Below the pieces are notes generated by a model. It saw nothing but the letters and a program-made list of their open reading frames with translations. It made no database searches and was not told where the DNA came from. Source: Halosimplex pelagicum (GTDB lineage Archaea > Halobacteriota > Halobacteria > Halobacteriales > Haloarculaceae). From it: a stretch of DNA of 64,000 nt. This document shows positions 43,725 to 56,740 of the stretch, piece after piece; positions within the stretch are counted from its first letter, which is position 1; each line of letters begins with the position of its first letter. The stretch covers positions 434,001-498,000 of the forward strand of contig NZ_CP058909.1 of assembly GCF_013415905.1 (NCBI RefSeq). Direction: 5' to 3'. The position numbers and the translations under genes were made by a program.

Positions 43725-44780
43725 ATGTACCAGGCGATGCGCGACAGACGAACGTTTCTGAAGGGCATGGGCGTGCTCGCCGGCGCCGGGTCACTCGCCG
43801 GCTGCACGAGCGGCGATTCGACGGACACGCCGGGCAGCGGCTCGACGGACGGGTCGAACGGCGGTTCGACGGCAACCGGCACGTCGTCGGGGGGCGGGCT
43901 CTCCTTCGGCGGCGATCGCGAGGTGAACATGGGGCTCTCGCCGAGCGTTCCCCAGCAGAACCTCTACGTCCAGTACGGGCCGATCCGCGACTACGTCGGG
44001 ACGAACCTCGAGGAGGAGTACGACGTGCCGCAGGGATTGAGCGTCGACATGAACATCGGCACCAACTACAGCACGGTGATCCAGGCGCTGGGCGAGGGGA
44101 CCGCCGACATCGCCGAGACCGGTCCCTTCGCCGCCGCGCTGGGCGTCAACACCGACAACGCCGAGGTGATCCTCCAGCGCAAGGGGTACGGCAGCTGGAC
44201 CTACAAGAGCATCATCGCCGTCCCCAACGACAGCGACATCGAGAGCCTCTCGGACCTGTCGGGCAAGACGGTCGCGTTCTCGGACCAGCTGTCGACCAGC
44301 GGCTGTCTGTACCCCCTCTACAGCATCTCCTCCGAGGGCGACCTCGACGTGGGGGAGCTGCCGGAGGGCAACGGCTCGCAGGCGGAGTTCGAGGCGCGCT
44401 TCGCCGGCGGGCACGTCCAGTCGTACACGCTGCTGAAGGAGGGGCGGGCCGACGCGGCCGCGATGGGCGCGTTCGTCCGCGACACCAAGACCGGCCCGAC
44501 CCCCGAGGAGTTCGAGAACACCGCGCGCACGCTCCACGAGGACTCGGGGCTGCCGCGGGCGCCGATCGTCGTCTCGCCGGAGCTGAGCGACGAGGCCAAG
44601 TCGGCGCTCAAGCAGTCGTTCCTGAACGCGCCCGACCGCATCTACTACGGCGCCGACGGCGAGGAGGGCACCGACGACGACCTGTGGTTCAGCGCCGTCC
44701 GCGAGGCCGACGTGGAGACCTACCAGTCCGTGATCGACGTGGCCGACGAGCTCGGCGTCGGCCCGGAGATCTTCGAGTAG
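43725..44780 (+). CDS. phnD: Phosphonate/phosphite/phosphate ABC transporter binding protein
   Basis: A Tat-exported lipoprotein of 351 residues: RDRRTFLKGMGVLAG then LAGC lipobox (Cys about 26), a Ser/Gly/Thr spacer, then the PhnD fold (VNMGLSPSVPQQNLYVQYGP; NYSTVIQALGEGTADIAETG; KTVAFSDQLSTSGCLYPLYS). It may start at the Met four codons in. The usual ligands are phosphonates, phosphite or phosphate. First gene of phnD-phnC-phnE. Confidence 0.9.
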   Translation: MYQAMRDRRTFLKGMGVLAGAGSLAGCTSGDSTDTPGSGSTDGSNGGSTATGTSSGGGLSFGGDREVNMGLSPSVPQQNLYVQYGPIRDYVGTNLEEEYDVPQGLSVDMNIGTNYSTVIQALGEGTADIAETGPFAAALGVNTDNAEVILQRKGYGSWTYKSIIAVPNDSDIESLSDLSGKTVAFSDQLSTSGCLYPLYSISSEGDLDVGELPEGNGSQAEFEARFAGGHVQSYTLLKEGRADAAAMGAFVRDTKTGPTPEEFENTARTLHEDSGLPRAPIVVSPELSDEAKSALKQSFLNAPDRIYYGADGEEGTDDDLWFSAVREADVETYQSVIDVADELGVGPEIFE

Positions 44781-44841
44781 CGCGGTCGACGGCCCGTCGA
44801 GCGGCCGGCGGGCGTCAGCGGTTCACGTGGCAGTCCAATCC

Positions 44842-45678
44842 ATGACAACCGTCGAATTCGACAACGTGACGAAGGTGTACGGTGATGACACGGTGGCGCT
44901 CGACGACGTCTCCGTCGAGATCCCCGAGGGCGAGTTCGTCGTCCTGCTCGGTCCCTCCGGCGCGGGGAAGTCGACGTTCCTGCGCGTGCTCAACGGGCTG
45001 ACCAGCCCCAGCGCCGGGAGCGTCGAGATCGGCGGCCGCGCCGTCGAGGGCAACCGCGGGGAGGTCGGGATGGTGTTCCAGGAACACTACCTCGTCGAGA
45101 ACCTCAGCGCCTACGGCAACGCGCTGACGGGCGCGCTCTCGCGCAACGGCTTCCTCCGGAGCCTCGCCGGCGGCCACGACGAGGAAGACAAACGCGCCGC
45201 GCTCGACGCGCTCGACACGGTGGGCCTGCTCGACGACGCCGGCCAGCGCGCCGGCTCGATGAGCGGCGGGCAGAAACAGCGCGTCGGCATCGCCCGCGCG
45301 CTCGTCCAGCAGCCCGAGCTGGTGCTGGCCGACGAACCCGTCGCCAGCCTCGACCCGAAGGCCGCCCGCGACGTGATGGGCTACCTGAAGCGGGCCGCCG
45401 ACGAGCACGACCTGACGACGATCACCAGCCTCCACCAGGTGAACATCGCCAGGGAGTTCGGCGACCGCTTCCTCGGCGTCAAGGACGGCCGGCTCGTCTT
45501 CGACGGCCGCGAGGACGACCTCACGATGGACGTGATCGACGACATCTACTACGACGGCGAGTCGGACGGCGAGACCGCGCCCGGCGACGCGGGCGACGAC
45601 GGCGACCTCGGCGGCGCCACGCCGGGTAACGCCTTCGACCAGTCGGCCACCGCCCACGAGGGGGGTGGCGGCGCGTGA
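44842..45678 (+). CDS. phnC: Phosphonate-type ABC transporter ATPase
   Basis: A 278-residue ATPase with Walker A LLGPSGAGKSTFLRVLNGL, Q-loop VFQEHYLVE, signature SGGQKQRVGIARAL, Walker B VLADEPVASLDP and the H-loop TSLHQVNIAREFGDR typical of PhnC. It has an acidic C-terminal tail (about 240-278). Start at MTTVEFDNVTKVYGDD (ATG 44842). Its stop overlaps the phnE GTG start. Confidence 0.93.
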   Translation: MTTVEFDNVTKVYGDDTVALDDVSVEIPEGEFVVLLGPSGAGKSTFLRVLNGLTSPSAGSVEIGGRAVEGNRGEVGMVFQEHYLVENLSAYGNALTGALSRNGFLRSLAGGHDEEDKRAALDALDTVGLLDDAGQRAGSMSGGQKQRVGIARALVQQPELVLADEPVASLDPKAARDVMGYLKRAADEHDLTTITSLHQVNIAREFGDRFLGVKDGRLVFDGREDDLTMDVIDDIYYDGESDGETAPGDAGDDGDLGGATPGNAFDQSATAHEGGGGA

Positions 45679-46673
45679 GCAGCATCGACGAGACGTTCGA
45701 GCGGCTCGAACGCGCCCGTCGGGTCCGGCAGGTCCTCTGGCTGGCCTTCCTCGGGAGCGTCGTCGCGGTGACCTACTGGGGGCTCGGGTTCATCGACTTC
45801 GACTTCGCCGTCGTCGTCGACCGCTACCCGGGATTCGTCGAGTTCCTCCTCAGTTTCTTCCCGCCGAACTTCGTCAACTTCACCGTCTACACGCAAAACG
45901 AGGGGATCACCGGGCTGGCGGCGATCCCGGCGAGCCTGGGCGACGGCGGCGCCCACATCGTCGAGAGCCTGCAGTCGCCGCGGCTCTCGCTCGTCAAGGC
46001 CAGTCTCGTCACCGTCCTGCTCGGATTCCTCGGCACCGTGCTGGGCTTCCCGCTCGCGCTCGTGTTCGGCGTCCTCGGCAGCGAGCGCGTCACCCCCTTC
46101 CCGTTCAACTTCATCTTCCGCGGGGCGATGAGCGCCATCCGCGCCATCCCCGCCATCGTCTGGATCTTCCTCTACATCCCCATCGGCCCGCCGAGCCAGG
46201 TGACCGCCGTCCTCGCCATCGCGACCGACAGCATCGGCAACCTCGGCCGGCTGTTCACCGACGAACTCGAAGAGATCGACGAGGGGCCCATCGAGGCGAT
46301 CCGCTCGACGGGGGCGTCTCGCTCCCAGACCATCGGCTTCGGCATGCTGAGCCAGGTGTCGCGGTCGTACATCGCGTGGACGCTGTACATCCTGGAGATC
46401 AACACCCGGATCGCCATCTCGTTGGGCGTCGTCGGCGCCGGCGGCCTCGGCCTGATGATCCGCAACAGCCAGGACCTGCTGTACTACGGCCAGACCGCCG
46501 CGGGCGTCATCATGGTGTTCGTCGTCGTCCTCTCCATCGAGCTGCTGTCGACGCGCATCCGCGCCCGACTGCGCCCCAGCGAACACGAGGACACCGGCTT
46601 CCTCGACCGACTCCGGGACTTCTTCGACGCCCGCAAGTGGCTCGGGATGGGCGTCCCCCGCGACCGGGAGTGA
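45675..46673 (+). CDS. phnE: Phosphonate-type ABC transporter permease
   Basis: A 332-residue permease starting at a GTG that overlaps the phnC stop. It has about six helices. The ATPase-contact loop reads EAIRSTGASRSQTIGFGMLS, and NTRIAISLGVVGAGGLGLMI is a PhnE hallmark. It completes the importer. No phosphonatase or C-P lyase gene lies in the window, so phosphate or phosphite uptake is as likely as phosphonate use. Confidence 0.92.
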   Translation: MSSIDETFERLERARRVRQVLWLAFLGSVVAVTYWGLGFIDFDFAVVVDRYPGFVEFLLSFFPPNFVNFTVYTQNEGITGLAAIPASLGDGGAHIVESLQSPRLSLVKASLVTVLLGFLGTVLGFPLALVFGVLGSERVTPFPFNFIFRGAMSAIRAIPAIVWIFLYIPIGPPSQVTAVLAIATDSIGNLGRLFTDELEEIDEGPIEAIRSTGASRSQTIGFGMLSQVSRSYIAWTLYILEINTRIAISLGVVGAGGLGLMIRNSQDLLYYGQTAAGVIMVFVVVLSIELLSTRIRARLRPSEHEDTGFLDRLRDFFDARKWLGMGVPRDRE

Positions 46674-48981: not shown

Positions 48982-50169
48982 ATGACAGACGTGGAGATCA
49001 CGGACGTACAGGCGACACAGGTCGACGCGGACTGGACGTGGACGTTCGTCCGCGTCTATACGGACGCGGGCGTGACGGGCACCGGCGAGTGTTACTGGGG
49101 GCCGGGGGTCAGCGACATCGTCGAGGACTCCGCCGAGTGGCTGGAGGGCGAGGACCCCCGCGATATCGAGCCGCTGGTCCACAGGCTCTACGAGATCCAC
49201 TCGGCGACGGGGTCGCTGGCGGGCGCGACCGTCAGCGCCATCTCGGGTATCGACATCGCGCTGCACGACCTGGCCGGCAAGTTGGAGGAACAGCCGGCCT
49301 ACCGGCTGCTGGGGGGCGCCTACCGCGACGAGGCGCGGATCTACGTGGACTGTCACGCCGGCGCGCACCTCGGCGGCGCCTTCGAGGGCGCGAAACAGGA
49401 GGAGCACGACCGGGACATCTACTCGCCGGAGAGCTACGCCGACGCCGCGGAGATGGTCGCCGACGAGGGCCACGACGCCATCAAGTTCGACCTCGACGCG
49501 AGCAAGCGCTACGAGAAAGACAGGCACAACCGCCACCTCAACGCCGAGGCCATCGACTACAAGGCCAGCGTCGTCGAGGCGGTCACCGAGCGGGTCGGCC
49601 ACGACGCCGACGTGGCCTTCGACTGTCACTGGAACTACGCGGGCGACAGCGCCCGCCGACTCGCGGCCGCCGTCGAGGACTACGACGTGTGGTGGCTCGA
49701 AGACGTGGTCCCCCCGGAGAACCTCGAAGTCCAGCGCGAGGTCACCCAGGCCACCGACACGACCATCTGCGCCGGCGAGAACGCCTTCCGGACTCACGGC
49801 GTCCGCGACATGGTCGAGCGACAGGGCATCGACGTGCTCCAGCCCGACATGCCGAAGTTCGGCGGCATGCGCGAGACGGTCAAGGCCGCGAACCTCGCCG
49901 ACGACTACTACATCCCGCTCGCCCTGCACAACGTCTCCTCGCCGCTGGGGACGAAGGCGGGCGCCCACGTCGGCGTCTCCGTCTCGAACTTCCTCGCCCT
50001 GGAGTGGCACGGCCGCGACGACCCCGACTGGGACACCTTCGTCGAGGAGGACGTGATCGAAGGGGGTTCGATCCCGGTCTCCGACGAGCCCGGCCTCGGC
50101 GTCACCCTCGATCTCGACGCCGTCGAGGAGCACATGAAAGAGGGCGAGACGCTCATCGACGAGGCGTAG
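48982..50169 (+). CDS. Enolase-superfamily sugar-acid dehydratase (mandelate racemase/muconate lactonizing group)
   Basis: A 395-residue (beta/alpha)7-beta barrel enzyme. Likely metal ligands are VAFDCHWNY (Asp, about 215), WWLEDVVPPEN (Glu) and ICAGEN (Glu). AIKFDLDA holds the strand-2 lysine in a K-F-D context and PLALHNVSSPLGTKAGAHV a catalytic His, as in galactonate/tartrate-type dehydratases. It should dehydrate a sugar acid to a 2-keto-3-deoxy acid. The substrate is unknown. Start ATG 48982. The next genes downstream suggest sugar-acid catabolism. Confidence 0.85.
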   Translation: MTDVEITDVQATQVDADWTWTFVRVYTDAGVTGTGECYWGPGVSDIVEDSAEWLEGEDPRDIEPLVHRLYEIHSATGSLAGATVSAISGIDIALHDLAGKLEEQPAYRLLGGAYRDEARIYVDCHAGAHLGGAFEGAKQEEHDRDIYSPESYADAAEMVADEGHDAIKFDLDASKRYEKDRHNRHLNAEAIDYKASVVEAVTERVGHDADVAFDCHWNYAGDSARRLAAAVEDYDVWWLEDVVPPENLEVQREVTQATDTTICAGENAFRTHGVRDMVERQGIDVLQPDMPKFGGMRETVKAANLADDYYIPLALHNVSSPLGTKAGAHVGVSVSNFLALEWHGRDDPDWDTFVEEDVIEGGSIPVSDEPGLGVTLDLDAVEEHMKEGETLIDEA

Positions 50170-50247
50170 GGGGCCGCGTTCGCCCGAGATCCCGGCCGGA
50201 TCCCGTTGGCCAGATGACTTTTCATCCCGGCGACCCTACCCGCGGCT

Positions 50248-50664
50248 ATGGCACGAACGGCCCTTCACCGGTTCCTCGCGCTCGCCCTCGGGATCGCCAC
50301 GGGCGGCTGGCTCTGGTGGGTCGACACGCATCCCGGTATCGCGGCGGCCGCCAGCGGTTCCGTGCTCGTCCTCGGTCTCGTCGCCTCCGGGCTCATCCGC
50401 AGGCACCCGGAGTACACGAGCGCGAGCGGGGACTGGCGCGACAACAGGTGGGGCGCGGCCGGCCAGCTGTTCCTGACCCTCGTCGCGTTCCAGGCCGTCT
50501 TCGCCGCGCCGGTCGAGCTGCCCGACGAGGTCGGCCTGCTCGTCGTGATCATGGCCGCGTACCTGATGGGGTATTTCCTCGGCGGCCTGGACGCGCTGGA
50601 ACACAGCGATCGTGACGCCGCCCGCGAGGGGTCGGCCGGAGCCGTCGATCCGGCGGACGACTGA
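50248..50664 (+). CDS. Small membrane protein, function unknown
   Basis: A 138-residue protein with four hydrophobic stretches (about 10-26, 30-52, 70-88 and 95-118), starting MARTALHRFLALALGIATGG. The C-terminal tail is acidic. No family recognised. It lies 78 bases after the dehydratase; whether it is part of the same unit is unclear. Confidence 0.72.
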   Translation: MARTALHRFLALALGIATGGWLWWVDTHPGIAAAASGSVLVLGLVASGLIRRHPEYTSASGDWRDNRWGAAGQLFLTLVAFQAVFAAPVELPDEVGLLVVIMAAYLMGYFLGGLDALEHSDRDAAREGSAGAVDPADD

Positions 50665-50952
50665 GTACCGCTCTCGGCTGGTGGAACCCCGCCGTTCTGC
50701 CGCCGCAAGCGGACACCGTATCGACGCGAGTGACTCCCACGACCGCCTCCTAGAGCGTGTCGGCGCCCGCGGGAGCCCCGAGACGGCTCGCGAGAGCCCC
50801 ATCTGTTTCGCCAGGTCCCACCGCTCGGTCCCCACGAAGACGGTGTACTCCAGACACCGCGCCTGCGACCGGCGGGGCAAAACCGTTCGGCTGGTCGCGA
50901 TTCGCGCCGGTTTCGGGAGATGCGGGCGGGCCGGCCGCGCGGCGCACTCGGC

Positions 50953-51534
50953 TCAGACCGCGTCCTCGGAGACGCGGTCGGCGAGGTAGATGTCGGCGTC
51001 GGGGTTCTGGTCGGCGTCCTGGACGATGTCGCCGCGGTCGCCGGCGGCCGCCAGCGCCTCCCGCGCTGTCGGCCGGTCGACGCGGCCCACGAGCTGGAGC
51101 GCCTGCAGGACGGCGGGTTTCGGCACGCCCTCGCCGGGACCGCCGAGTTCGAGGTCCGCGAGGTACTCCGGCTGCTCGTCCTGGATGAACCGGACGTACT
51201 CGGCCACGTCGGTCGAACCGCCGAGTTCCTCGTGCCACGCCTCGGGGAACAGGCTGATCCGGTGGTCGTCGATGTCGTCCCCGATCTCGTAGTAGCCGCC
51301 CCCTTCCCAGCGGTCGGCGTCGGTGGTGTGTTCGTCCACGTCGGCGAGGAACGCCTGCTCGTCGAAGGCGTAGTCGTCGCGAGCCGCCAGTTCCTCCGCG
51401 TACGCCTCGACGGTCTCGGGCTCGACACCGGCCCCGTCGTGGTGGCGCTCGATCAGCTCGACGAGGTCGCGCCCGCCCATCGACTCCCCCTCGCGGACCG
51501 CCTCCTCGACGGCCGCCTGGTTCGGTTCGGTCAC
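50953..51534 (-). CDS. Hypothetical acidic soluble protein
   Basis: A 193-residue, strongly acidic soluble protein (MTEPNQAAVEEAVREGESMG...) without membrane helices. It is divergent from the kinase gene at 51675 and could be a regulator or unrelated. The C-terminal LQALQLVGRVDRPTAREALA segment looks helical but gives no clear DNA-binding motif. Family not recognised. About 290 bases between it and the membrane gene at 50248 hold no gene I can support. Confidence 0.7.
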   Translation of the reverse strand: MTEPNQAAVEEAVREGESMGGRDLVELIERHHDGAGVEPETVEAYAEELAARDDYAFDEQAFLADVDEHTTDADRWEGGGYYEIGDDIDDHRISLFPEAWHEELGGSTDVAEYVRFIQDEQPEYLADLELGGPGEGVPKPAVLQALQLVGRVDRPTAREALAAAGDRGDIVQDADQNPDADIYLADRVSEDAV

Positions 51535-51674
51535 GTGGCCGGTTCGGTCCTCGGGCGAATAAGTCGCCGGCCGGCGATCGAATGGTGGGTGCGGGGCGGT
51601 CGCCCCGTGGTGACCCGGCAGTCCGGACCGGCGGGACGGACGCGACTAAGTGCGAGCGAGCGAAAGCCACGGCA

Positions 51675-52943
51675 ATGCCGAACGCGCTGGTCGTCGCCGA
51701 CGACCTGACGGGTGCGATGGACACCGGCCACGGCTTCGCCGCGCGCGGGCGGGCGGTTCGGGTCCGCCGGTCGGCCGACGCCGGTCGCGCCGACGCGACC
51801 GAAACGGACGTGCTCGTCGTCGACACGGACAGCCGCGACGCCGACCCCGGGACGGCCGCGGCGACCGTGGCCCGAGCGGTCGAGACCCACCCCGCCGACC
51901 TCGTCTACGAGAAGGTCGACTCGACGCTGCGCGGGAACGTCGTCGCGGAAGTCGACGCGGCGGTCGCCGCCGCCGACGCCGACATCGCCGTCGTCGCGCC
52001 GGCGTTCCCGGCGACCGGCCGCACCACCGAGGACGGCCGCCACCTCGTCGACGGGACGCCGCTGGCCGAGGCGGACTACGGCGTCGCCGAGTCCGACCTC
52101 CCGACACTGTTCGCCGCCTCGGAGTATCCGGTCGCGCATCTCGACGTCGATACCGTCGACGCCGGCGCGGCGGCCGTCGCGGCCCGACTGGCCGACTGCG
52201 CCGCAGACGACCGGCCGACGCTCGTCGTCTGTGACGCGTCGAGCGACGCCCACCTCGAAGCGATCGCGGACGGGACGGCGTCGCTGGACGAGAGCGCGCT
52301 CTACGTCGGCAGCGGCGCGCTCGCGGCTCACGTCGACGTGCCGGGCGATCCGGCGGGGGACTCCCCCGGTCTATCGACCGACCCCCGAAGTTCGGGCGTC
52401 CTCGGCGTCGTCGGGAGCGTCAACGAGCGGACGCTCGATCAGTTAGCGGCGGTCGACGACGAGGCGGTCGTCGCCCTCGACCCCGCGGCGGCCGTCCGCG
52501 ACCCGGCGTCGGCCGGTCGCGCGGCCGCCGAATCGCTCTCCGCGCTGCTCGACTGGCGGGGACGAGCGGTCGTCACGGCGGCGACGGGACCCGAGGACGT
52601 AACCGCGGCCGCGCGCTCGGCCGCGGCCCTCGCCGAGGACGCGACGGCCGCCGACCGGAGCGCGGCCGACCGGGTCGCGGCCGCGCTGGCCGCCGCCGCC
52701 CGGGCGACCGTCGAGGACGCGCCGCCCGCCGGACTCGTCCTCACCGGGGGCGACACCGCGGGGGCGGTGCTGGACGCGCTCGACGCCGAGGAGATCCGCC
52801 TCACCGGCGAGTCGGTCGCCGCGGGCGTGCCGGTCGGGGCACTCGCGGACGGCCCCGCGGCGGGGACGCGGGTGGCGACGAAGGCCGGCGGCTTCGGGTC
52901 CGAAAGGGTCATCCTCAACTGTCTGGACGCGCTGGGTCGGTAG
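51675..52943 (+). CDS. Four-carbon acid-sugar kinase (DUF1537/OtnK-DtnK family)
   Basis: A 422-residue kinase of the DUF1537 family, known to phosphorylate four-carbon sugar acids (threonate, erythronate or their oxo forms). The N-terminal domain starts NALVVADDLTGAMDTGHGFA and includes VYEKVDSTLRGNVVAEVDAA. The C-terminal ATP domain has LTGGDTAGAVLDALDAEEI and the family end KAGGFGSERVILNCL. Start ATG 51675. The stop is one base before the PdxA-like gene, so the two form an operon. Together they fit a kinase-then-dehydrogenase route for a tetronate. Confidence 0.93.
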   Translation: MPNALVVADDLTGAMDTGHGFAARGRAVRVRRSADAGRADATETDVLVVDTDSRDADPGTAAATVARAVETHPADLVYEKVDSTLRGNVVAEVDAAVAAADADIAVVAPAFPATGRTTEDGRHLVDGTPLAEADYGVAESDLPTLFAASEYPVAHLDVDTVDAGAAAVAARLADCAADDRPTLVVCDASSDAHLEAIADGTASLDESALYVGSGALAAHVDVPGDPAGDSPGLSTDPRSSGVLGVVGSVNERTLDQLAAVDDEAVVALDPAAAVRDPASAGRAAAESLSALLDWRGRAVVTAATGPEDVTAAARSAAALAEDATAADRSAADRVAAALAAAARATVEDAPPAGLVLTGGDTAGAVLDALDAEEIRLTGESVAAGVPVGALADGPAAGTRVATKAGGFGSERVILNCLDALGR

Positions 52944-52944
52944 C

Positions 52945-54039
52945 ATGGAGCGACCGACCGTCGCCGTGACGATGGGCGACCCCGCCGGCGTCGGCGCCGA
53001 GGTGGTCGTCGAAGCGTACCCGGCGCTGTGCGACGCCGCGACGCCGCTCGTCGTCGGCGACGCCGACGTACTGCGCGCGGCCGTCGATATCTGCGACAGC
53101 GACCTGACCGTCGAGCCCGTCGACTCGCCGAGCGCGGCGGACGCCGACCCCGGGACGATCCCGGTGCTCGACCTGGACAACGTCGATGCCGACGCCCTGA
53201 CCTACGGCGAGGTCCGCGAGGACTACGGCGCGGCGAGCCTCGAATACGTCGAGCGCGCCATCGAGTTGGCGACCGACGGGGCCGTCGACGCCATCGCGAC
53301 CGCGCCGATCAACAAGCAGGCGACCCGCTGCGCCGGCAGCACCTACGCCGGCCACACGGGGATGCTCGCCGACTACACCGACACCGATGAGTACGCGATG
53401 ATGCTGGTCGAAGGGTTGGCGGACGCCGCCGACGGGAGCGTCGGCGCGGACCTGATCGTCACCCACGTCAGCACCCACGTCCCGCTGACCGAGGCGTGCA
53501 ACAAGGTGTGTCGCGGGCGCGTCCGGACGACGATCGACGTGACCCACGAGGGGCTGCGCGACCTGGGGATCGACGACCCGACCATCGCCGTCGCGGGGCT
53601 GAACCCCCACGCCAGCGACGGCGGCATCCTCGGTATCGCGGAGGGCAGCGAGATCGAACCGGCGGTCGACGACGCCCGGGCGGACGGGCTGGACGTGGTC
53701 GGCCCCGAATCACCGGACACCGTCTTCGCGCAGGCGGCCGGCGGCGCCTACGACTGCGTGGTCGCGATGTACCACGACCAGGGCCACATCCCGATCAAGA
53801 TGCTCGGGTTCGCCAGCGACGACGCCGTCTCCGGCGTCAACGTCACCGCCGGCCTGCCGATCGTCCGCACGAGCGTCGACCACGGCACCGCCTTCGACAT
53901 CGCCGGCGAGGGGTGCGCCAGCGAGGCCAGCATGGTCGACGCCGTCGAGCTCGCCGCGCGCATCGCCCGCAACCGCGCCGCGCGCGACGACGCGCCTGCC
54001 CCCGAGGGGTCCCCCGCCCCGGACGCCGGGAGCGACTGA
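52945..54039 (+). CDS. PdxA-family 4-phospho-hydroxyacid dehydrogenase (PdxA2-like)
   Basis: A 364-residue metal- and NAD-dependent oxidoreductase of the PdxA family. Signatures are VTMGDPAGVGAEVVVEAY, TAPINKQATRCAGSTYAGHT, VTHVSTHVPLTEACNKV and MYHDQGHIPIKMLGFASDDA. In the bacterial D-threonate route a PdxA2 oxidises threonate 4-phosphate and the product loses CO2 to give dihydroxyacetone phosphate. The adjacent kinase makes that assignment likelier than vitamin B6 synthesis (archaea use PdxS/T for that). The C-terminal tail (about 345-364) is disordered. Confidence 0.92.
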   Translation: MERPTVAVTMGDPAGVGAEVVVEAYPALCDAATPLVVGDADVLRAAVDICDSDLTVEPVDSPSAADADPGTIPVLDLDNVDADALTYGEVREDYGAASLEYVERAIELATDGAVDAIATAPINKQATRCAGSTYAGHTGMLADYTDTDEYAMMLVEGLADAADGSVGADLIVTHVSTHVPLTEACNKVCRGRVRTTIDVTHEGLRDLGIDDPTIAVAGLNPHASDGGILGIAEGSEIEPAVDDARADGLDVVGPESPDTVFAQAAGGAYDCVVAMYHDQGHIPIKMLGFASDDAVSGVNVTAGLPIVRTSVDHGTAFDIAGEGCASEASMVDAVELAARIARNRAARDDAPAPEGSPAPDAGSD

Positions 54040-54048
54040 CGGGTCGGG

Positions 54049-54462
54049 TCAGTCCTCGCGCGTCGGAGTCTCCCCTGGCGGGAAGATATCCGACTCGGGC
54101 ATCTCGGCCAGTTCGGCCTCCGGGCCGGGCGGCGCGTAGACCGCGAGCAGTTTCAGCGTCTCCCAGCCCGTGTTCTGCGTGCCGTGCTCGACGCCCTCGG
54201 GGATGTAGATCACCTCGCCGGCGCTCACCTCCCGCGTGTCGCCGTCGACGGTCTGCTCGCCCTCGCCGGCGAGGAAGTAGAGGATCTCGTCGCTGTCGGG
54301 GTGTTCGTGCAGGTCGTGGCCCTCTCCGGGTTCGAGCTGGACGACCCCCGCACTCAGCCGCTCGGAGTCGTTGACCTCGGGACTCGCCATCCACTTGAGC
54401 GTCCCCCAGTCGAACCGCTGTGTCGATACGTCGTCGCCCTCGACGAAGTGCTCGTCTGCCAT
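54049..54462 (-). CDS. Cupin-domain protein
   Basis: A 137-residue single cupin. The first motif is GHDLHEHPDSDEILYFLAGE with His and Glu metal ligands, and the second is VIYIPEGVEHGTQNTGWETL. Start ATG 54462 (MADEHFVEGDDVSTQRFDW). It is convergent with the PdxA-type gene and divergent from the TIM-barrel gene. Cupins beside sugar-acid genes are often isomerases or ligand-binding regulators. Its reaction is unknown. Confidence 0.9.
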   Translation of the reverse strand: MADEHFVEGDDVSTQRFDWGTLKWMASPEVNDSERLSAGVVQLEPGEGHDLHEHPDSDEILYFLAGEGEQTVDGDTREVSAGEVIYIPEGVEHGTQNTGWETLKLLAVYAPPGPEAELAEMPESDIFPPGETPTRED

Positions 54463-54657
54463 GGTCGCGTGCGACCCGTTCGCACCGTCGTCGCTTATCT
54501 GTTCGTACCTGTCGGAATTCGGATCTGGCGCGCAGACCGACCGATCCGGGAACTATCCCGGAACCGTCCGGGTCCCGCCGTCTCGCCGGGGCTGGGGCCG
54601 AACCGGATACCTCCCCGACATCTTGATTAGGTCGTTGGCCGTCCGTCGAACCATACC

Positions 54658-55491
54658 ATGGAATTCAGCCGTGCGGACTCCCTGGCGCGACTCGAATCGG
54701 TCGTCGACAGCGGCGAACCAGTCATCGGCGCGGGCGCGGGGACGGGGATCTCGGCGAAGTTCGCCGAGCGCGGCGGCGTCGACCTGCTGATCATCTACAA
54801 CTCCGGGCGCTACCGGATGAACGGCCGCGGGTCGCTGGCGGGCCTGCTGCCCTACGGCGACGCCAACGAGATCGTCGTCGAGATGGGCCACGAGGTGTTG
54901 CCCGTCGTCGAGGACACGCCCGTCCTCGCCGGCGTCAACGGGACCGACCCGTTCCGCGACATGAGCGTGTTCATCGAGGACCTGAAGCGCCGCGGGTTCT
55001 CCGGCGTGCAGAACTTCCCGACGGTGGGGCTCATCGACGAGGACAGCGGGTTCCGGCAGAACCTCGAAGAGACGGGCATGGGCTACGACCAGGAGGTCGA
55101 GATGATCCGCGAGGCCAGCGAGCAGGGGATGCTCACCTGCCCGTACGTATTCAGCGAGGAGCAGGCCCGCGCGATGACCGAGGCCGGCGCCGACGTGGTC
55201 GTCTCCCACATGGGCCTGACCACCTCGGGCGACATCGGCGCCGAGACCGCGCTCGACCTGGAGACCGCCGCCGAGCGCGTCCAGGCCCACTGCGACGCCG
55301 CCAAGGACGTGAACGAGGACGTGCTGGTCATCTGCCACGGCGGCCCGATCGCCTGGCCCGACGACGCCGAGTACGTGCTCAACAACACCGAGGGCGTCGT
55401 CGGCTTCTTCGGCGCCTCCAGCATCGAACGGCTCCCCACCGAGGGCGCCATCGAGAACCAGGCCCGCGAGTTCAAGGAGATCGACTTCTGA
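54658..55491 (+). CDS. Phosphoenolpyruvate-hydrolase-family TIM-barrel protein (PF09370-type)
   Basis: A 277-residue TIM-barrel protein: VIGAGAGTGISAKFAERGGV, LLIIYNSGRYRMNGRGSLAG, VVEDTPVLAGVNGTDPFRDM, FSGVQNFPTVGLIDEDSGFR and DVVVSHMGLTTSGDIG. These match the family named for a phosphoenolpyruvate hydrolase, which is often encoded next to or fused with a Tm-1-like (UPF0261) protein, as here. I know of no firmly established reaction for the pair. It is followed after 22 bases by the Tm-1-like gene. Confidence 0.88.
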   Translation: MEFSRADSLARLESVVDSGEPVIGAGAGTGISAKFAERGGVDLLIIYNSGRYRMNGRGSLAGLLPYGDANEIVVEMGHEVLPVVEDTPVLAGVNGTDPFRDMSVFIEDLKRRGFSGVQNFPTVGLIDEDSGFRQNLEETGMGYDQEVEMIREASEQGMLTCPYVFSEEQARAMTEAGADVVVSHMGLTTSGDIGAETALDLETAAERVQAHCDAAKDVNEDVLVICHGGPIAWPDDAEYVLNNTEGVVGFFGASSIERLPTEGAIENQAREFKEIDF

Positions 55492-55513
55492 TGGCGCTCC
55501 ACAGGTTCGGGAG

Positions 55514-56740
55514 GTGGCGACCGTGAGCGTCGTGATCGTCGGGACGCTCGACACGAAAGGCGAAGAGATCGCGTTCGCCCGCGACGTGATCGAGGCGCAG
55601 GGAATCGACGTACACGTCGTCGACGTGGGGATCGTGGGCGAACCCGAGTTCGAACCGGACACGTCCGCGAGCGAGGTCACCGAAGCGGCCGGGACGACCC
55701 TCGACGCGCTGCGGGAGGCGGGCGACCGCGGCGAGGCCATCGAGGCGATGGGCGACGGCGCGGCGGCGGTCGCGACGCGGCTCCACGAGGAGGGAGTCCT
55801 CGACGCGGTCCTCGGTCTCGGCGGCTCGGGGAACACGTCGATCGCGGCCGCGGCGATGCGGGAACTCCCCGTCGGCGTCCCGAAGGTGATGGTCTCGACG
55901 ATGGCCTCGGGCGACACCGAGCCCTACGTCGGCGCCCGCGACATCATGATGCTCTACTCCGTCGCGGACATCGAGGGATTGAACCAGCTCTCGCGGCGGG
56001 TCATCTCGAACGCCGCGCTCGCGGTCGTCGGGATGGTCGCCAACGACCCGGCCGTCGAGGTCGAGGACCGTCCGACCGTCGGGATCACGATGTTCGGCGT
56101 CACCACGCCCTGCGTCCAGACCGCCCGCGAGCACCTCGAAGACCGCGGCTACGAGACGATCGTCTTCCACGCCACCGGGACGGGCGGCCGGGCGATGGAG
56201 TCGCTGATCGAGGAGGGCGTCATCGACGGCGTGCTCGATATCACGACGACCGAGTGGGCGGACGAACTCGTCGGCGGCGTCCTGAGCGCCGGGCCCGAGC
56301 GGCTGGACGCCGCCGCCGAGGCGGGGATCCCACAGGTCGTCTCCGTCGGCGCGCTGGACATGGTGAACTTCGGCCCGCGCGACTCGGTCCCCGAGGAGTT
56401 CGAGGGGCGGCAGTTCCACGTCCACAACCCGCAGGTGACGCTCATGCGGACGACGCCCGAGGAGAACGCCGAACTCGGTGAGATACTGGCGGCGAAACTG
56501 AACGCGGCGACCGGACCGACGGCGCTCGCGCTCCCGCTCGACGGCGTCTCGATGCTCGACGTCGAGGGCGAGCCCTTCCACGACCCGGAGGCCGACGCGG
56601 CGCTGTTCGACGCGCTCCGGGACGGCCTCGACGACGATGTCGAACTGATCGAGGTCGACGCGGCGATCAACGACGACGAGTTCGCGCGGACGGTCGCCGA
56701 GCGGCTGGACGAGTCGATGCGGGCGGCCGGCGTCGTCTGA
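55514..56740 (+). CDS. Tm-1-like ATP-binding domain protein (UPF0261)
   Basis: A 408-residue protein of the UPF0261/Tm-1-like family. Recognised blocks are VVIVGTLDTKGEEIAFARDV, AVLGLGGSGNTSIAAAAMRE, VPKVMVSTMASGDTEPYVGA, DIMMLYSVADIEGLNQLSRR, VFHATGTGGRAMESLIEEGV and DGVLDITTTEWADELVGGVL. The family name comes from the tomato Tm-1 resistance protein; the prokaryotic role is unknown. It starts at GTG 55514 or the GTG at 55523, shortly after the TIM-barrel gene, and is probably co-transcribed with it. Confidence 0.9.
   Translation: MATVSVVIVGTLDTKGEEIAFARDVIEAQGIDVHVVDVGIVGEPEFEPDTSASEVTEAAGTTLDALREAGDRGEAIEAMGDGAAAVATRLHEEGVLDAVLGLGGSGNTSIAAAAMRELPVGVPKVMVSTMASGDTEPYVGARDIMMLYSVADIEGLNQLSRRVISNAALAVVGMVANDPAVEVEDRPTVGITMFGVTTPCVQTAREHLEDRGYETIVFHATGTGGRAMESLIEEGVIDGVLDITTTEWADELVGGVLSAGPERLDAAAEAGIPQVVSVGALDMVNFGPRDSVPEEFEGRQFHVHNPQVTLMRTTPEENAELGEILAAKLNAATGPTALALPLDGVSMLDVEGEPFHDPEADAALFDALRDGLDDDVELIEVDAAINDDEFARTVAERLDESMRAAGVV

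What the first reader, a model, noticed from the sequence alone, without database searches (positions are those of the whole stretch)
48982..56740. Candidate sugar-acid catabolic locus with unassigned steps
An enolase-family dehydratase, a DUF1537 kinase, a PdxA2-type dehydrogenase, a cupin, a PEP-hydrolase-family TIM barrel and a Tm-1-like protein sit within 8 kb. Kinase plus PdxA2 match the known bacterial tetronate route (phosphorylation, oxidation, decarboxylation to dihydroxyacetone phosphate). The dehydratase, cupin and TIM/Tm-1 pair are not part of that known route and could form an extended haloarchaeal pathway for tetronate or a larger acid sugar.
Basis: partly seen in the sequence, partly recalled or inferred. 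Interest (0 to 1): 0.72.

Follow-up and report, generated by a model that had tools for sequence, protein, structure and literature searches.

The report
Two sugar-acid gene units, side by side
In this salt-loving archaeon (a Halosimplex), a gene pair predicted to break down four-carbon sugar acids sits beside a widespread gene set related to the tomato virus-resistance protein Tm-1; relatives carry each set without the other, so the stretch is likely two separate catabolic units rather than one new extended pathway.

Summary
The single extended pathway is not supported. In 194 sampled Halobacteria genomes UPF0261 occurs in 49 and PEP_hydrolase in 48, all 48 inside the 49. The cupin lies within 1 kb of one of them in 35 of 48 fetched loci; 1 of those 48, from the same genus, also has the kinase-PdxA2 pair. 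In a second set of 80 UPF0261 loci (73 bacterial), none has kinase or PdxA2. The kinase-PdxA2 pair occurs without the other unit in 18 other haloarchaeal loci. Of 6 Halosimplex genomes with the kinase, 2 lack UPF0261, 1 has it on another contig, 3 have both at one site. A frequent partner of the pair is a LarA-like epimerase gene, next to PdxA2 in 4 of 6 Halosimplex and 6 of 18 other loci, and missing here. Kinase plus PdxA2 are predicted to run the known tetronate route; PdxJ is absent, so a vitamin B6 role is unlikely. The cupin-PEP_hydrolase-UPF0261 unit is likely an independent, ATP-using catabolic module; its substrate is unknown.

The parts
48982..50169 (+). enolase-superfamily (MR_MLE) protein, predicted acid-sugar dehydratase, paralogue of an enolase-family protein common in haloarchaea
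   Evidence: Pfam PF13378 184 bits, PF02746 49.1 bits; best PDB match 2qq6 278.9 bits with the D/E/E and His positions aligned (their role recalled); matches in 178 of 194 genomes at E <= 1e-60, those listed after the first four being 56-62% identical (list truncated). Queries began at 48985, one residue short
50248..50664 (+). 138-aa membrane-like ORF, unknown; kept at this site in Halosimplex relatives
   Evidence: no Pfam match; tblastn 55-68% in L088, L247-L250
50953..51534 (-). 193-aa acidic ORF, unknown, separates enolase from kinase
   Evidence: no Pfam match; found at the site in 5 of 5 Halosimplex relatives with the kinase
51675..52943 (+). DUF1537 four-carbon acid sugar kinase
   Evidence: PF07005 152.9 and PF17042 96.3 bits; best NCBIfam D-threonate kinase 218.2 bits, below its equivalog cut-off of 450
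52945..54039 (+). PdxA2-type dehydrogenase (predicted 4-phospho-tetronate 3-dehydrogenase/decarboxylase)
   Evidence: PF04166 327.2 bits; 6e85 D-threonate 4-phosphate dehydrogenase 263.2 bits, 1yxo (PdxA 1) 163.4 bits
54049..54462 (-). single-domain cupin, belongs with PEPh/UPF0261
   Evidence: Cupin_2 69 bits; a homologue within 1 kb of PEPh or UPF0261 in 35 of 48 other haloarchaeal loci
54658..55491 (+). PEP_hydrolase-family (TBST) TIM barrel, predicted phosphate-binding lyase/hydrolase
   Evidence: PF09370 425.9 bits; 2p10 342.1 bits; model pLDDT 89.0
55514..56740 (+). UPF0261 / Tm-1-like protein (alternative start 55523)
   Evidence: PF23189 346.7 and PF06792 227.3 bits; Tm-1 protein 3wry 313.8 bits, 9mpy 244 bits; model pLDDT 94.4

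Best explanation
The stretch holds separable gene units side by side at one Halosimplex site: a DUF1537 kinase-PdxA2 pair predicted to turn a four-carbon sugar acid into dihydroxyacetone phosphate, and a cupin-PEP_hydrolase-UPF0261 unit that likely runs a different, ATP-using breakdown of its own. Inferred steps of the first unit: kinase puts phosphate on O4 of D-threonate (or D-erythronate), PdxA2 oxidises C3, and the 3-oxo acid loses CO2 to give dihydroxyacetone phosphate. In 4 of 5 kinase-bearing Halosimplex relatives a LarA-like 2-hydroxyacid epimerase gene follows PdxA2 and would feed the C2 epimer in; it is missing at this site, so this strain would accept a narrower set of tetronates. 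Inferred steps of the second unit: UPF0261 binds a keto (or beta-keto) compound and ATP, and the phosphate-site TIM barrel PEP_hydrolase cleaves the activated product, with the cupin as an isomerase or sensor. The enolase is a third, independently placed gene, predicted to dehydrate a sugar acid. Shown: gene content, linkage and distribution. Inferred: every reaction and substrate.
For: Separability: UPF0261 49/194, PEP_hydrolase 48/194 with 48 shared (Fisher p 5.4e-45); kinase and PdxA2 in 1 of 48 UPF0261 loci, the same-genus G161. 0 of 80 loci of a second collection have kinase or PdxA2 (2 of these 80 are contigs also among the 48); the same search finds bacterial kinase and PdxA2 in control loci L254 and L255 (25-30% and 44-48% identity). 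18 of 24 fetched DUF1537 loci have kinase and PdxA2 with 8-26 bp between the hits; none of the 24 has UPF0261, PEPh or the cupin. Genus: kinase in 6 of 8, UPF0261 in 4 of 8 (one of the two with neither is 71% complete); G195 and G197 carry the pair at this site and no UPF0261 in the genome, G196 has the two on different contigs, G000, G161 and G198 have both here. Enolase sits beside PiT without either unit in G138. Tetronate reading: PdxA2 over PdxA1, PdxJ absent and PdxS present; in the 18 other loci GntP near 4, IclR near 10, FAH near 5, LarA-like gene next to PdxA2 in 6; the last also in 4 of 6 Halosimplex loci. Second unit: some bacterial operons add sugar ABC transporter, GFO_IDH_MocA and xylose-isomerase-like genes; 9mpy is a UPF0261 protein solved with acetovanillone (title).
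Against: Three Halosimplex genomes keep both units and the enolase at one site, which could mean a genus-level functional link. UPF0261 genomes hold any DUF1537 protein more often than expected (12 versus 6.1, p 0.0052; without Halosimplex 10 versus 5.4, p 0.031); for the kinase-PdxA2 type itself it is 8 versus 4.8, p 0.095, and 6 versus 4.2, p 0.37 without Halosimplex. Neither kinase nor PdxA reaches the NCBIfam equivalog cut-offs for D-threonate enzymes, so the substrate could be another four-carbon or larger acid. G194 has a LarA-like orthologue but no kinase, and 14 of 24 kinase-PdxA2 loci have no LarA-like gene next to PdxA2. 11 of 80 UPF0261 loci have no PEPh in the stretch (4 of them with UPF0261 close to a contig end), so that unit is not invariant. 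ATP use by UPF0261 rests on its family name only.
Confidence: 0.78

Rival explanations
1. One extended haloarchaeal pathway: the enolase dehydrates a larger sugar acid and the kinase, PdxA2, PEPh and UPF0261 act in sequence on its products.
For: All parts within 8 kb and kept together at one site in G000, G161 and G198; weak genome-level excess of UPF0261 with any DUF1537 protein.
Against: 2 of 6 Halosimplex kinase genomes have no UPF0261, a third has it on another contig; outside the genus 0 of 47 UPF0261 loci have the kinase and 0 of 18 kinase-PdxA2 loci have UPF0261 within about 9 kb; 0 of 80 in the second set. The nearest enolase relatives and the kinase lie about 0.2 and 0.5 Mb apart in G136 and G138.
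Confidence: 0.1
2. The kinase-PdxA2 pair handles another substrate: not a tetronate but, for example, a branched or longer acid, with the enolase product feeding it.
For: Below the equivalog cut-offs of NCBIfam D-threonate enzymes; enolase-family homologues (26% identity) in 3 of 18 kinase-PdxA2 loci and an enolase, UxaA and aldehyde dehydrogenase genes near the pair in Haladaptatus QDMS2.
Against: PdxA scores 263.2 bits with D-threonate 4-phosphate dehydrogenase, one of the three best PDB matches; a LarA-like neighbour fits C2 epimers of one acid.
Confidence: 0.2
3. PdxA here serves vitamin B6 synthesis.
For: Generic PdxA model TIGR00557 passes its cut-off (332.8 against 290.35 bits).
Against: No PdxJ match in the genome, PdxS present; 1 bp from a DUF1537 kinase, and adjacent to one in all 18 other loci.
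Confidence: 0.02
4. UPF0261-PEPh is a regulatory or signalling pair (as the name TIM-barrel signal transduction suggests), not an enzyme pair.
For: Older family name (PMC5028733, passages); no assayed activity in the listings of my paper searches.
Against: Dozens of invariant residues across 51 and 41 sequences; operons with transporters and oxidoreductases; 9mpy was solved with a small aryl ketone (title).
Confidence: 0.12

Closest known systems
Bacterial D-threonate/D-erythronate route: DUF1537 kinase (DtnK/DenK) plus PdxA2 (recalled: Zhang et al. 2016; not read here)
   Same: Same two families, adjacent genes, same order; PdxA2-type rather than PdxA1-type; bacterial pairs of the same order in L254 and L255.
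   Different: Haloarchaeal sequences, below the NCBIfam equivalog cut-offs; several relatives add a LarA-like epimerase gene that this window lacks.
Tm-1 / UPF0261 plus TBST (PEP_hydrolase) pair
   Same: Same two families; the pair was already described as co-occurring and co-evolving in bacteria, archaea and fungi and fused in plants (PMC5028733, abstract and passages).
   Different: Separate genes here, with a cupin as third member; in the passages I saw that paper gives no catabolic role.
Saro_1862 (PDB 9mpy), UPF0261 protein of Novosphingobium with bound acetovanillone
   Different: About 36% identical; an aryl ketone ligand; my searches found no paper on its function.
LarA superfamily (nickel-pincer 2-hydroxyacid epimerases), PMC11770544
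   Same: LarA homologues epimerise 4-deoxy-threonate/4-deoxy-erythronate at C2 (abstract and passages), the kind of chemistry predicted for the haloarchaeal neighbour gene.
   Different: That gene is absent at this site; the Pfam support of the haloarchaeal protein is marginal and threonate itself was not among the reactions I saw.

Membership tests
DUF1537 four-carbon acid sugar kinase | both domains (SBD_N, NBD_C) above Pfam cut-off | tested here: met
   152.9 and 96.3 bits against 25 and 28.3
DUF1537 four-carbon acid sugar kinase | D-threonate kinase equivalog score (NF047819) | tested here: not met
   218.2 bits against 450
PdxA2 (4-phospho-D-threonate dehydrogenase) | closer to PdxA2 than to PdxA1 solved enzymes | tested here: met
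   263.2 and 260.5 bits (6e85, 2hi1) against 158.6 and 163.4 (1ps7, 1yxo); the top chain 4jqp, 264.2 bits, has only the generic PdxA name
PdxA2 (4-phospho-D-threonate dehydrogenase) | equivalog score (NF002891) | tested here: not met
   294.9 bits against 583
PdxA2 (4-phospho-D-threonate dehydrogenase) | adjacent DUF1537 kinase | tested here: met
   1 bp apart here; 18 of 18 other fetched haloarchaeal loci with this kinase type
PdxA2 (4-phospho-D-threonate dehydrogenase) | activity on phospho-tetronates | not testable with these tools
   needs enzyme assay
B6 biosynthesis PdxA | PdxJ in the genome | tested here: not met
   0 matches to PF03740; PdxS (PF01680) present
UPF0261 / Tm-1-like | both UPF0261 domains | tested here: met
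   227.3 and 346.7 bits against 27
UPF0261 / Tm-1-like | fusion to the TIM barrel as in plants | tested here: not met
   two separate ORFs
UPF0261 / Tm-1-like | ATP binding | not testable with these tools
   family name only
PEP_hydrolase (PF09370) | family profile | tested here: met
   425.9 bits against 33.8
ICL/PEPM superfamily | membership of PEP_hydrolase in this lyase superfamily | tested here: inconclusive
Acid-sugar dehydratase of the enolase superfamily | MR_MLE domains and aligned metal/His positions | tested here: met
   which residues are catalytic is recalled
Acid-sugar dehydratase of the enolase superfamily | any equivalog cut-off | tested here: not met
   best 174 bits against 311, galactonate dehydratase

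The most novel reading that the evidence does not exclude
UPF0261-PEP_hydrolase, often with a cupin, is a self-contained, widely spread catabolic module (Haloarchaea, Bacilli, Clostridia, Actinomycetes, Chloroflexi, Rhizobia) in which UPF0261 activates a keto-sugar or beta-keto acid with ATP and the TIM barrel cleaves it. The plant antiviral protein Tm-1 is then a fused carbohydrate- or ketone-degrading enzyme pair that was recruited against tobamoviruses.
Probability: 0.3. Interest if true: 0.72.

Novelty: new member of a known kind. Interest (0 to 1): 0.42.

Why it matters
It replaces one speculative long pathway by two smaller testable ones. The tetronate unit would extend a bacterial route to archaea and points to a LarA-like epimerase as a frequent third gene. 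The other unit gives a genetic handle (Haloferax volcanii rings for both families, control rows) on UPF0261 and PEP_hydrolase, two protein families for which I found no assigned reaction in my paper searches, and from which plants made Tm-1.
Full report
WHAT IS THERE. The window lies in a 5.2-Mb genome. The genus is inferred to be Halosimplex: the same-genus genome G161 has a contig of 4,480,147 bases, the length of the Halosimplex rubrum contig, and the best UPF0261 relatives that bear a name (90-92%) are named Halosimplex. The named gene families are all present with strong profile scores (coordinates). Reading order: enolase-family protein, small membrane-like ORF, acidic ORF on the other strand, DUF1537 kinase, PdxA, cupin (other strand), PEP_hydrolase TIM barrel, UPF0261. 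Kinase and PdxA are 1 bp apart, PEP_hydrolase and UPF0261 22 or 31 bp; the cupin faces away from PEP_hydrolase. This already suggests two transcription units rather than one.

DO THE NEIGHBOURS TRAVEL TOGETHER? In a sample of 194 Halobacteria genomes UPF0261 was found in 49, PEP_hydrolase in 48 and DUF1537 (NBD_C) in 24. All 48 PEP_hydrolase genomes are among the 49 UPF0261 genomes (expected 12.1, Fisher p 5.4e-45). I fetched 48 of the 50 UPF0261 places (left out: the window's own and a second copy in G169 near a contig start) and 24 of the 26 DUF1537 places (left out: the window's own and G161, covered by its UPF0261 locus) with about 9 kb on each side where the contig allowed. By tblastn with the window's proteins, 45 of 48 UPF0261 loci hold PEP_hydrolase, 40 with a gap under 1.3 kb, and 35 of 48 hold the cupin within 1 kb of either; in 21 of 48 the cupin sits between the two on the same strand (counted). 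The three without PEP_hydrolase are a contig end (G097), a genome without it (G053) and one with fragments only (G180). Kinase and PdxA2 appear in 1 of the 48, the same-genus genome G161. Conversely, 18 of the 24 DUF1537 loci have a kinase of the window's type with PdxA2 8-26 bp away (between tblastn hit edges); the other 6 are a divergent DUF1537 type without a PdxA2 match. None of the 24 shows UPF0261, PEP_hydrolase or the cupin.

GENOME-LEVEL CO-OCCURRENCE. Told in full: UPF0261 with any DUF1537, 12 genomes against 6.1 expected (p 0.0052; 10 against 5.4, p 0.031 without Halosimplex); UPF0261 with the kinase-PdxA2 type, 8 against 4.8 (p 0.095; 6 against 4.2, p 0.37 without Halosimplex). There may be a weak shared life-style signal, but no linkage outside the genus.

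THE NATURAL EXPERIMENT WITHIN HALOSIMPLEX. Of 8 genomes, the kinase is in 6 and UPF0261 in 4; G194 and G199 have neither, and G199 is only 71% complete. At the same chromosomal place: G000 (window), G161 and G198 have enolase, kinase-PdxA2 and cupin-PEPh-UPF0261; G195 and G197 have enolase and kinase-PdxA2 but no UPF0261 in the genome; G196 has kinase-PdxA2 here without the enolase, and cupin-PEPh-UPF0261 on another contig. In G138 (same family, other genus) an enolase 79% identical stands next to the PiT phosphate transporter, with one small gene between and neither unit, while the kinase of that genome is about 0.5 Mb away. Each unit can therefore be present without the others.

OUTSIDE THE HALOARCHAEA. 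Two of the 7 (L171, L172) have the contig lengths of loci already among the 48 (L098, L087). PEP_hydrolase is in 69 of 80 (within 300 bp in 60), the cupin in 25, kinase in 0 and PdxA2 in 0. Of the 11 without PEP_hydrolase, 4 have UPF0261 close to a contig end. The same tblastn does find kinase and PdxA2 in two bacterial control loci (L254, L255), at 25-30% and 44-48% identity. Scanned neighbours of some of these loci are sugar-type ABC transporters, GFO_IDH_MocA oxidoreductase, xylose-isomerase-like TIM barrels and a gluconate 2-dehydrogenase subunit, but also seemingly unrelated genes such as MFS, DUF2252 and HAD proteins (20 of 83 neighbour ORFs). Annotated plasmid loci show the pair with GFO_IDH_MocA and cupin genes in Sinorhizobium NGR234 and Terrarubrum, and more distant UPF0261 proteins without PEP_hydrolase in Thermus, Ruegeria, Shinella and Pseudosulfitobacter. 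I looked at 12 such regions of 60 listed and 343 matching records.

THE KINASE-PdxA2 UNIT. The kinase has both domains; the motifs VADDLTGA, KVDSTLRGN and TKAGGFG are present (their role is recalled). PdxA scores higher with D-threonate 4-phosphate dehydrogenase and PdxA2 than with PdxA1 chains. The genome has no PdxJ match and has PdxS, so a vitamin B6 role is unlikely. Neither protein reaches the NCBIfam equivalog cut-off for D-threonate enzymes, so the exact acid is open. In the 18 other haloarchaeal loci a GntP permease is near the pair in 4, an IclR regulator in 10, FAH in 5 and aldehyde dehydrogenase in 2 (counted, families); two Haladaptatus plasmids show it near a sugar ABC transporter or sugar-acid genes. 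These are catabolic surroundings.

A GENE THE WINDOW LACKS. In 4 of 6 Halosimplex kinase loci a LarA-like gene follows PdxA2 within about 12 bp; in 6 of 18 other haloarchaeal loci it lies next to PdxA2 (5 on the same strand, 1 tail to tail), in 2 more it is about 3 and 7 kb away. Lactate racemase superfamily enzymes epimerise 2-hydroxy acids at C2, among them 4-deoxy-threonate/4-deoxy-erythronate (PMC11770544, abstract and passages). D-threonate and D-erythronate are C2 epimers (general knowledge), so the epimerase would widen the substrate range of the pair. The window has no room for it (9 bp between PdxA2 and the cupin gene); the genome has only a 47% homologue elsewhere and a match to the nickel-insertion family PF01969 (LarC by recall). 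Against a strict link: G194 has an orthologue but no kinase. Pfam support for the LarA assignment is marginal.

VERDICT. Observation confirmed; single extended pathway not supported; tetronate part supported as a prediction. The stretch is most likely a Halosimplex juxtaposition of two catabolic units and an independent dehydratase gene. The more open and more interesting question is the reaction of the UPF0261-PEP_hydrolase pair.

Noticed in passing
L088:7769-9076; L247:7288-8595; L248:7189-8496; L249:10749-12056: LarA-like gene directly after PdxA2 in four Halosimplex relatives, absent from the window and from the G196 locus.
   Followed up: partly
L252:4016-7999: Haladaptatus halobius plasmid with LarA-like (DUF362), DUF1537 kinase, cupin and PdxA in a row, plus a sugar ABC transporter.
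   Followed up: no
L105-L110: A second, divergent DUF1537 type in six haloarchaeal loci without a PdxA2 match beside it.
   Followed up: no
   Followed up: no
L133:7122-12827: Thermus thermophilus plasmid with UPF0261 between a creatininase-family gene and a class II aldolase, followed by a tripartite tricarboxylate transporter; no PEP_hydrolase match.
   Followed up: no
window 43734-46673: PhnCDE-type ABC transporter genes (NCBIfam PhnC and PhnE scores just below cut-off, PhnD equivalog far below) upstream of a UDG/Endo_dU gene pair; partly kept in two Halosimplex relatives.
   Followed up: partly
L176, L180, L183, L184, L186: Poribacteria UPF0261 genes without PEP_hydrolase within the 8-9 kb fetched on each side, one next to a weak PhyH match.
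   Followed up: no
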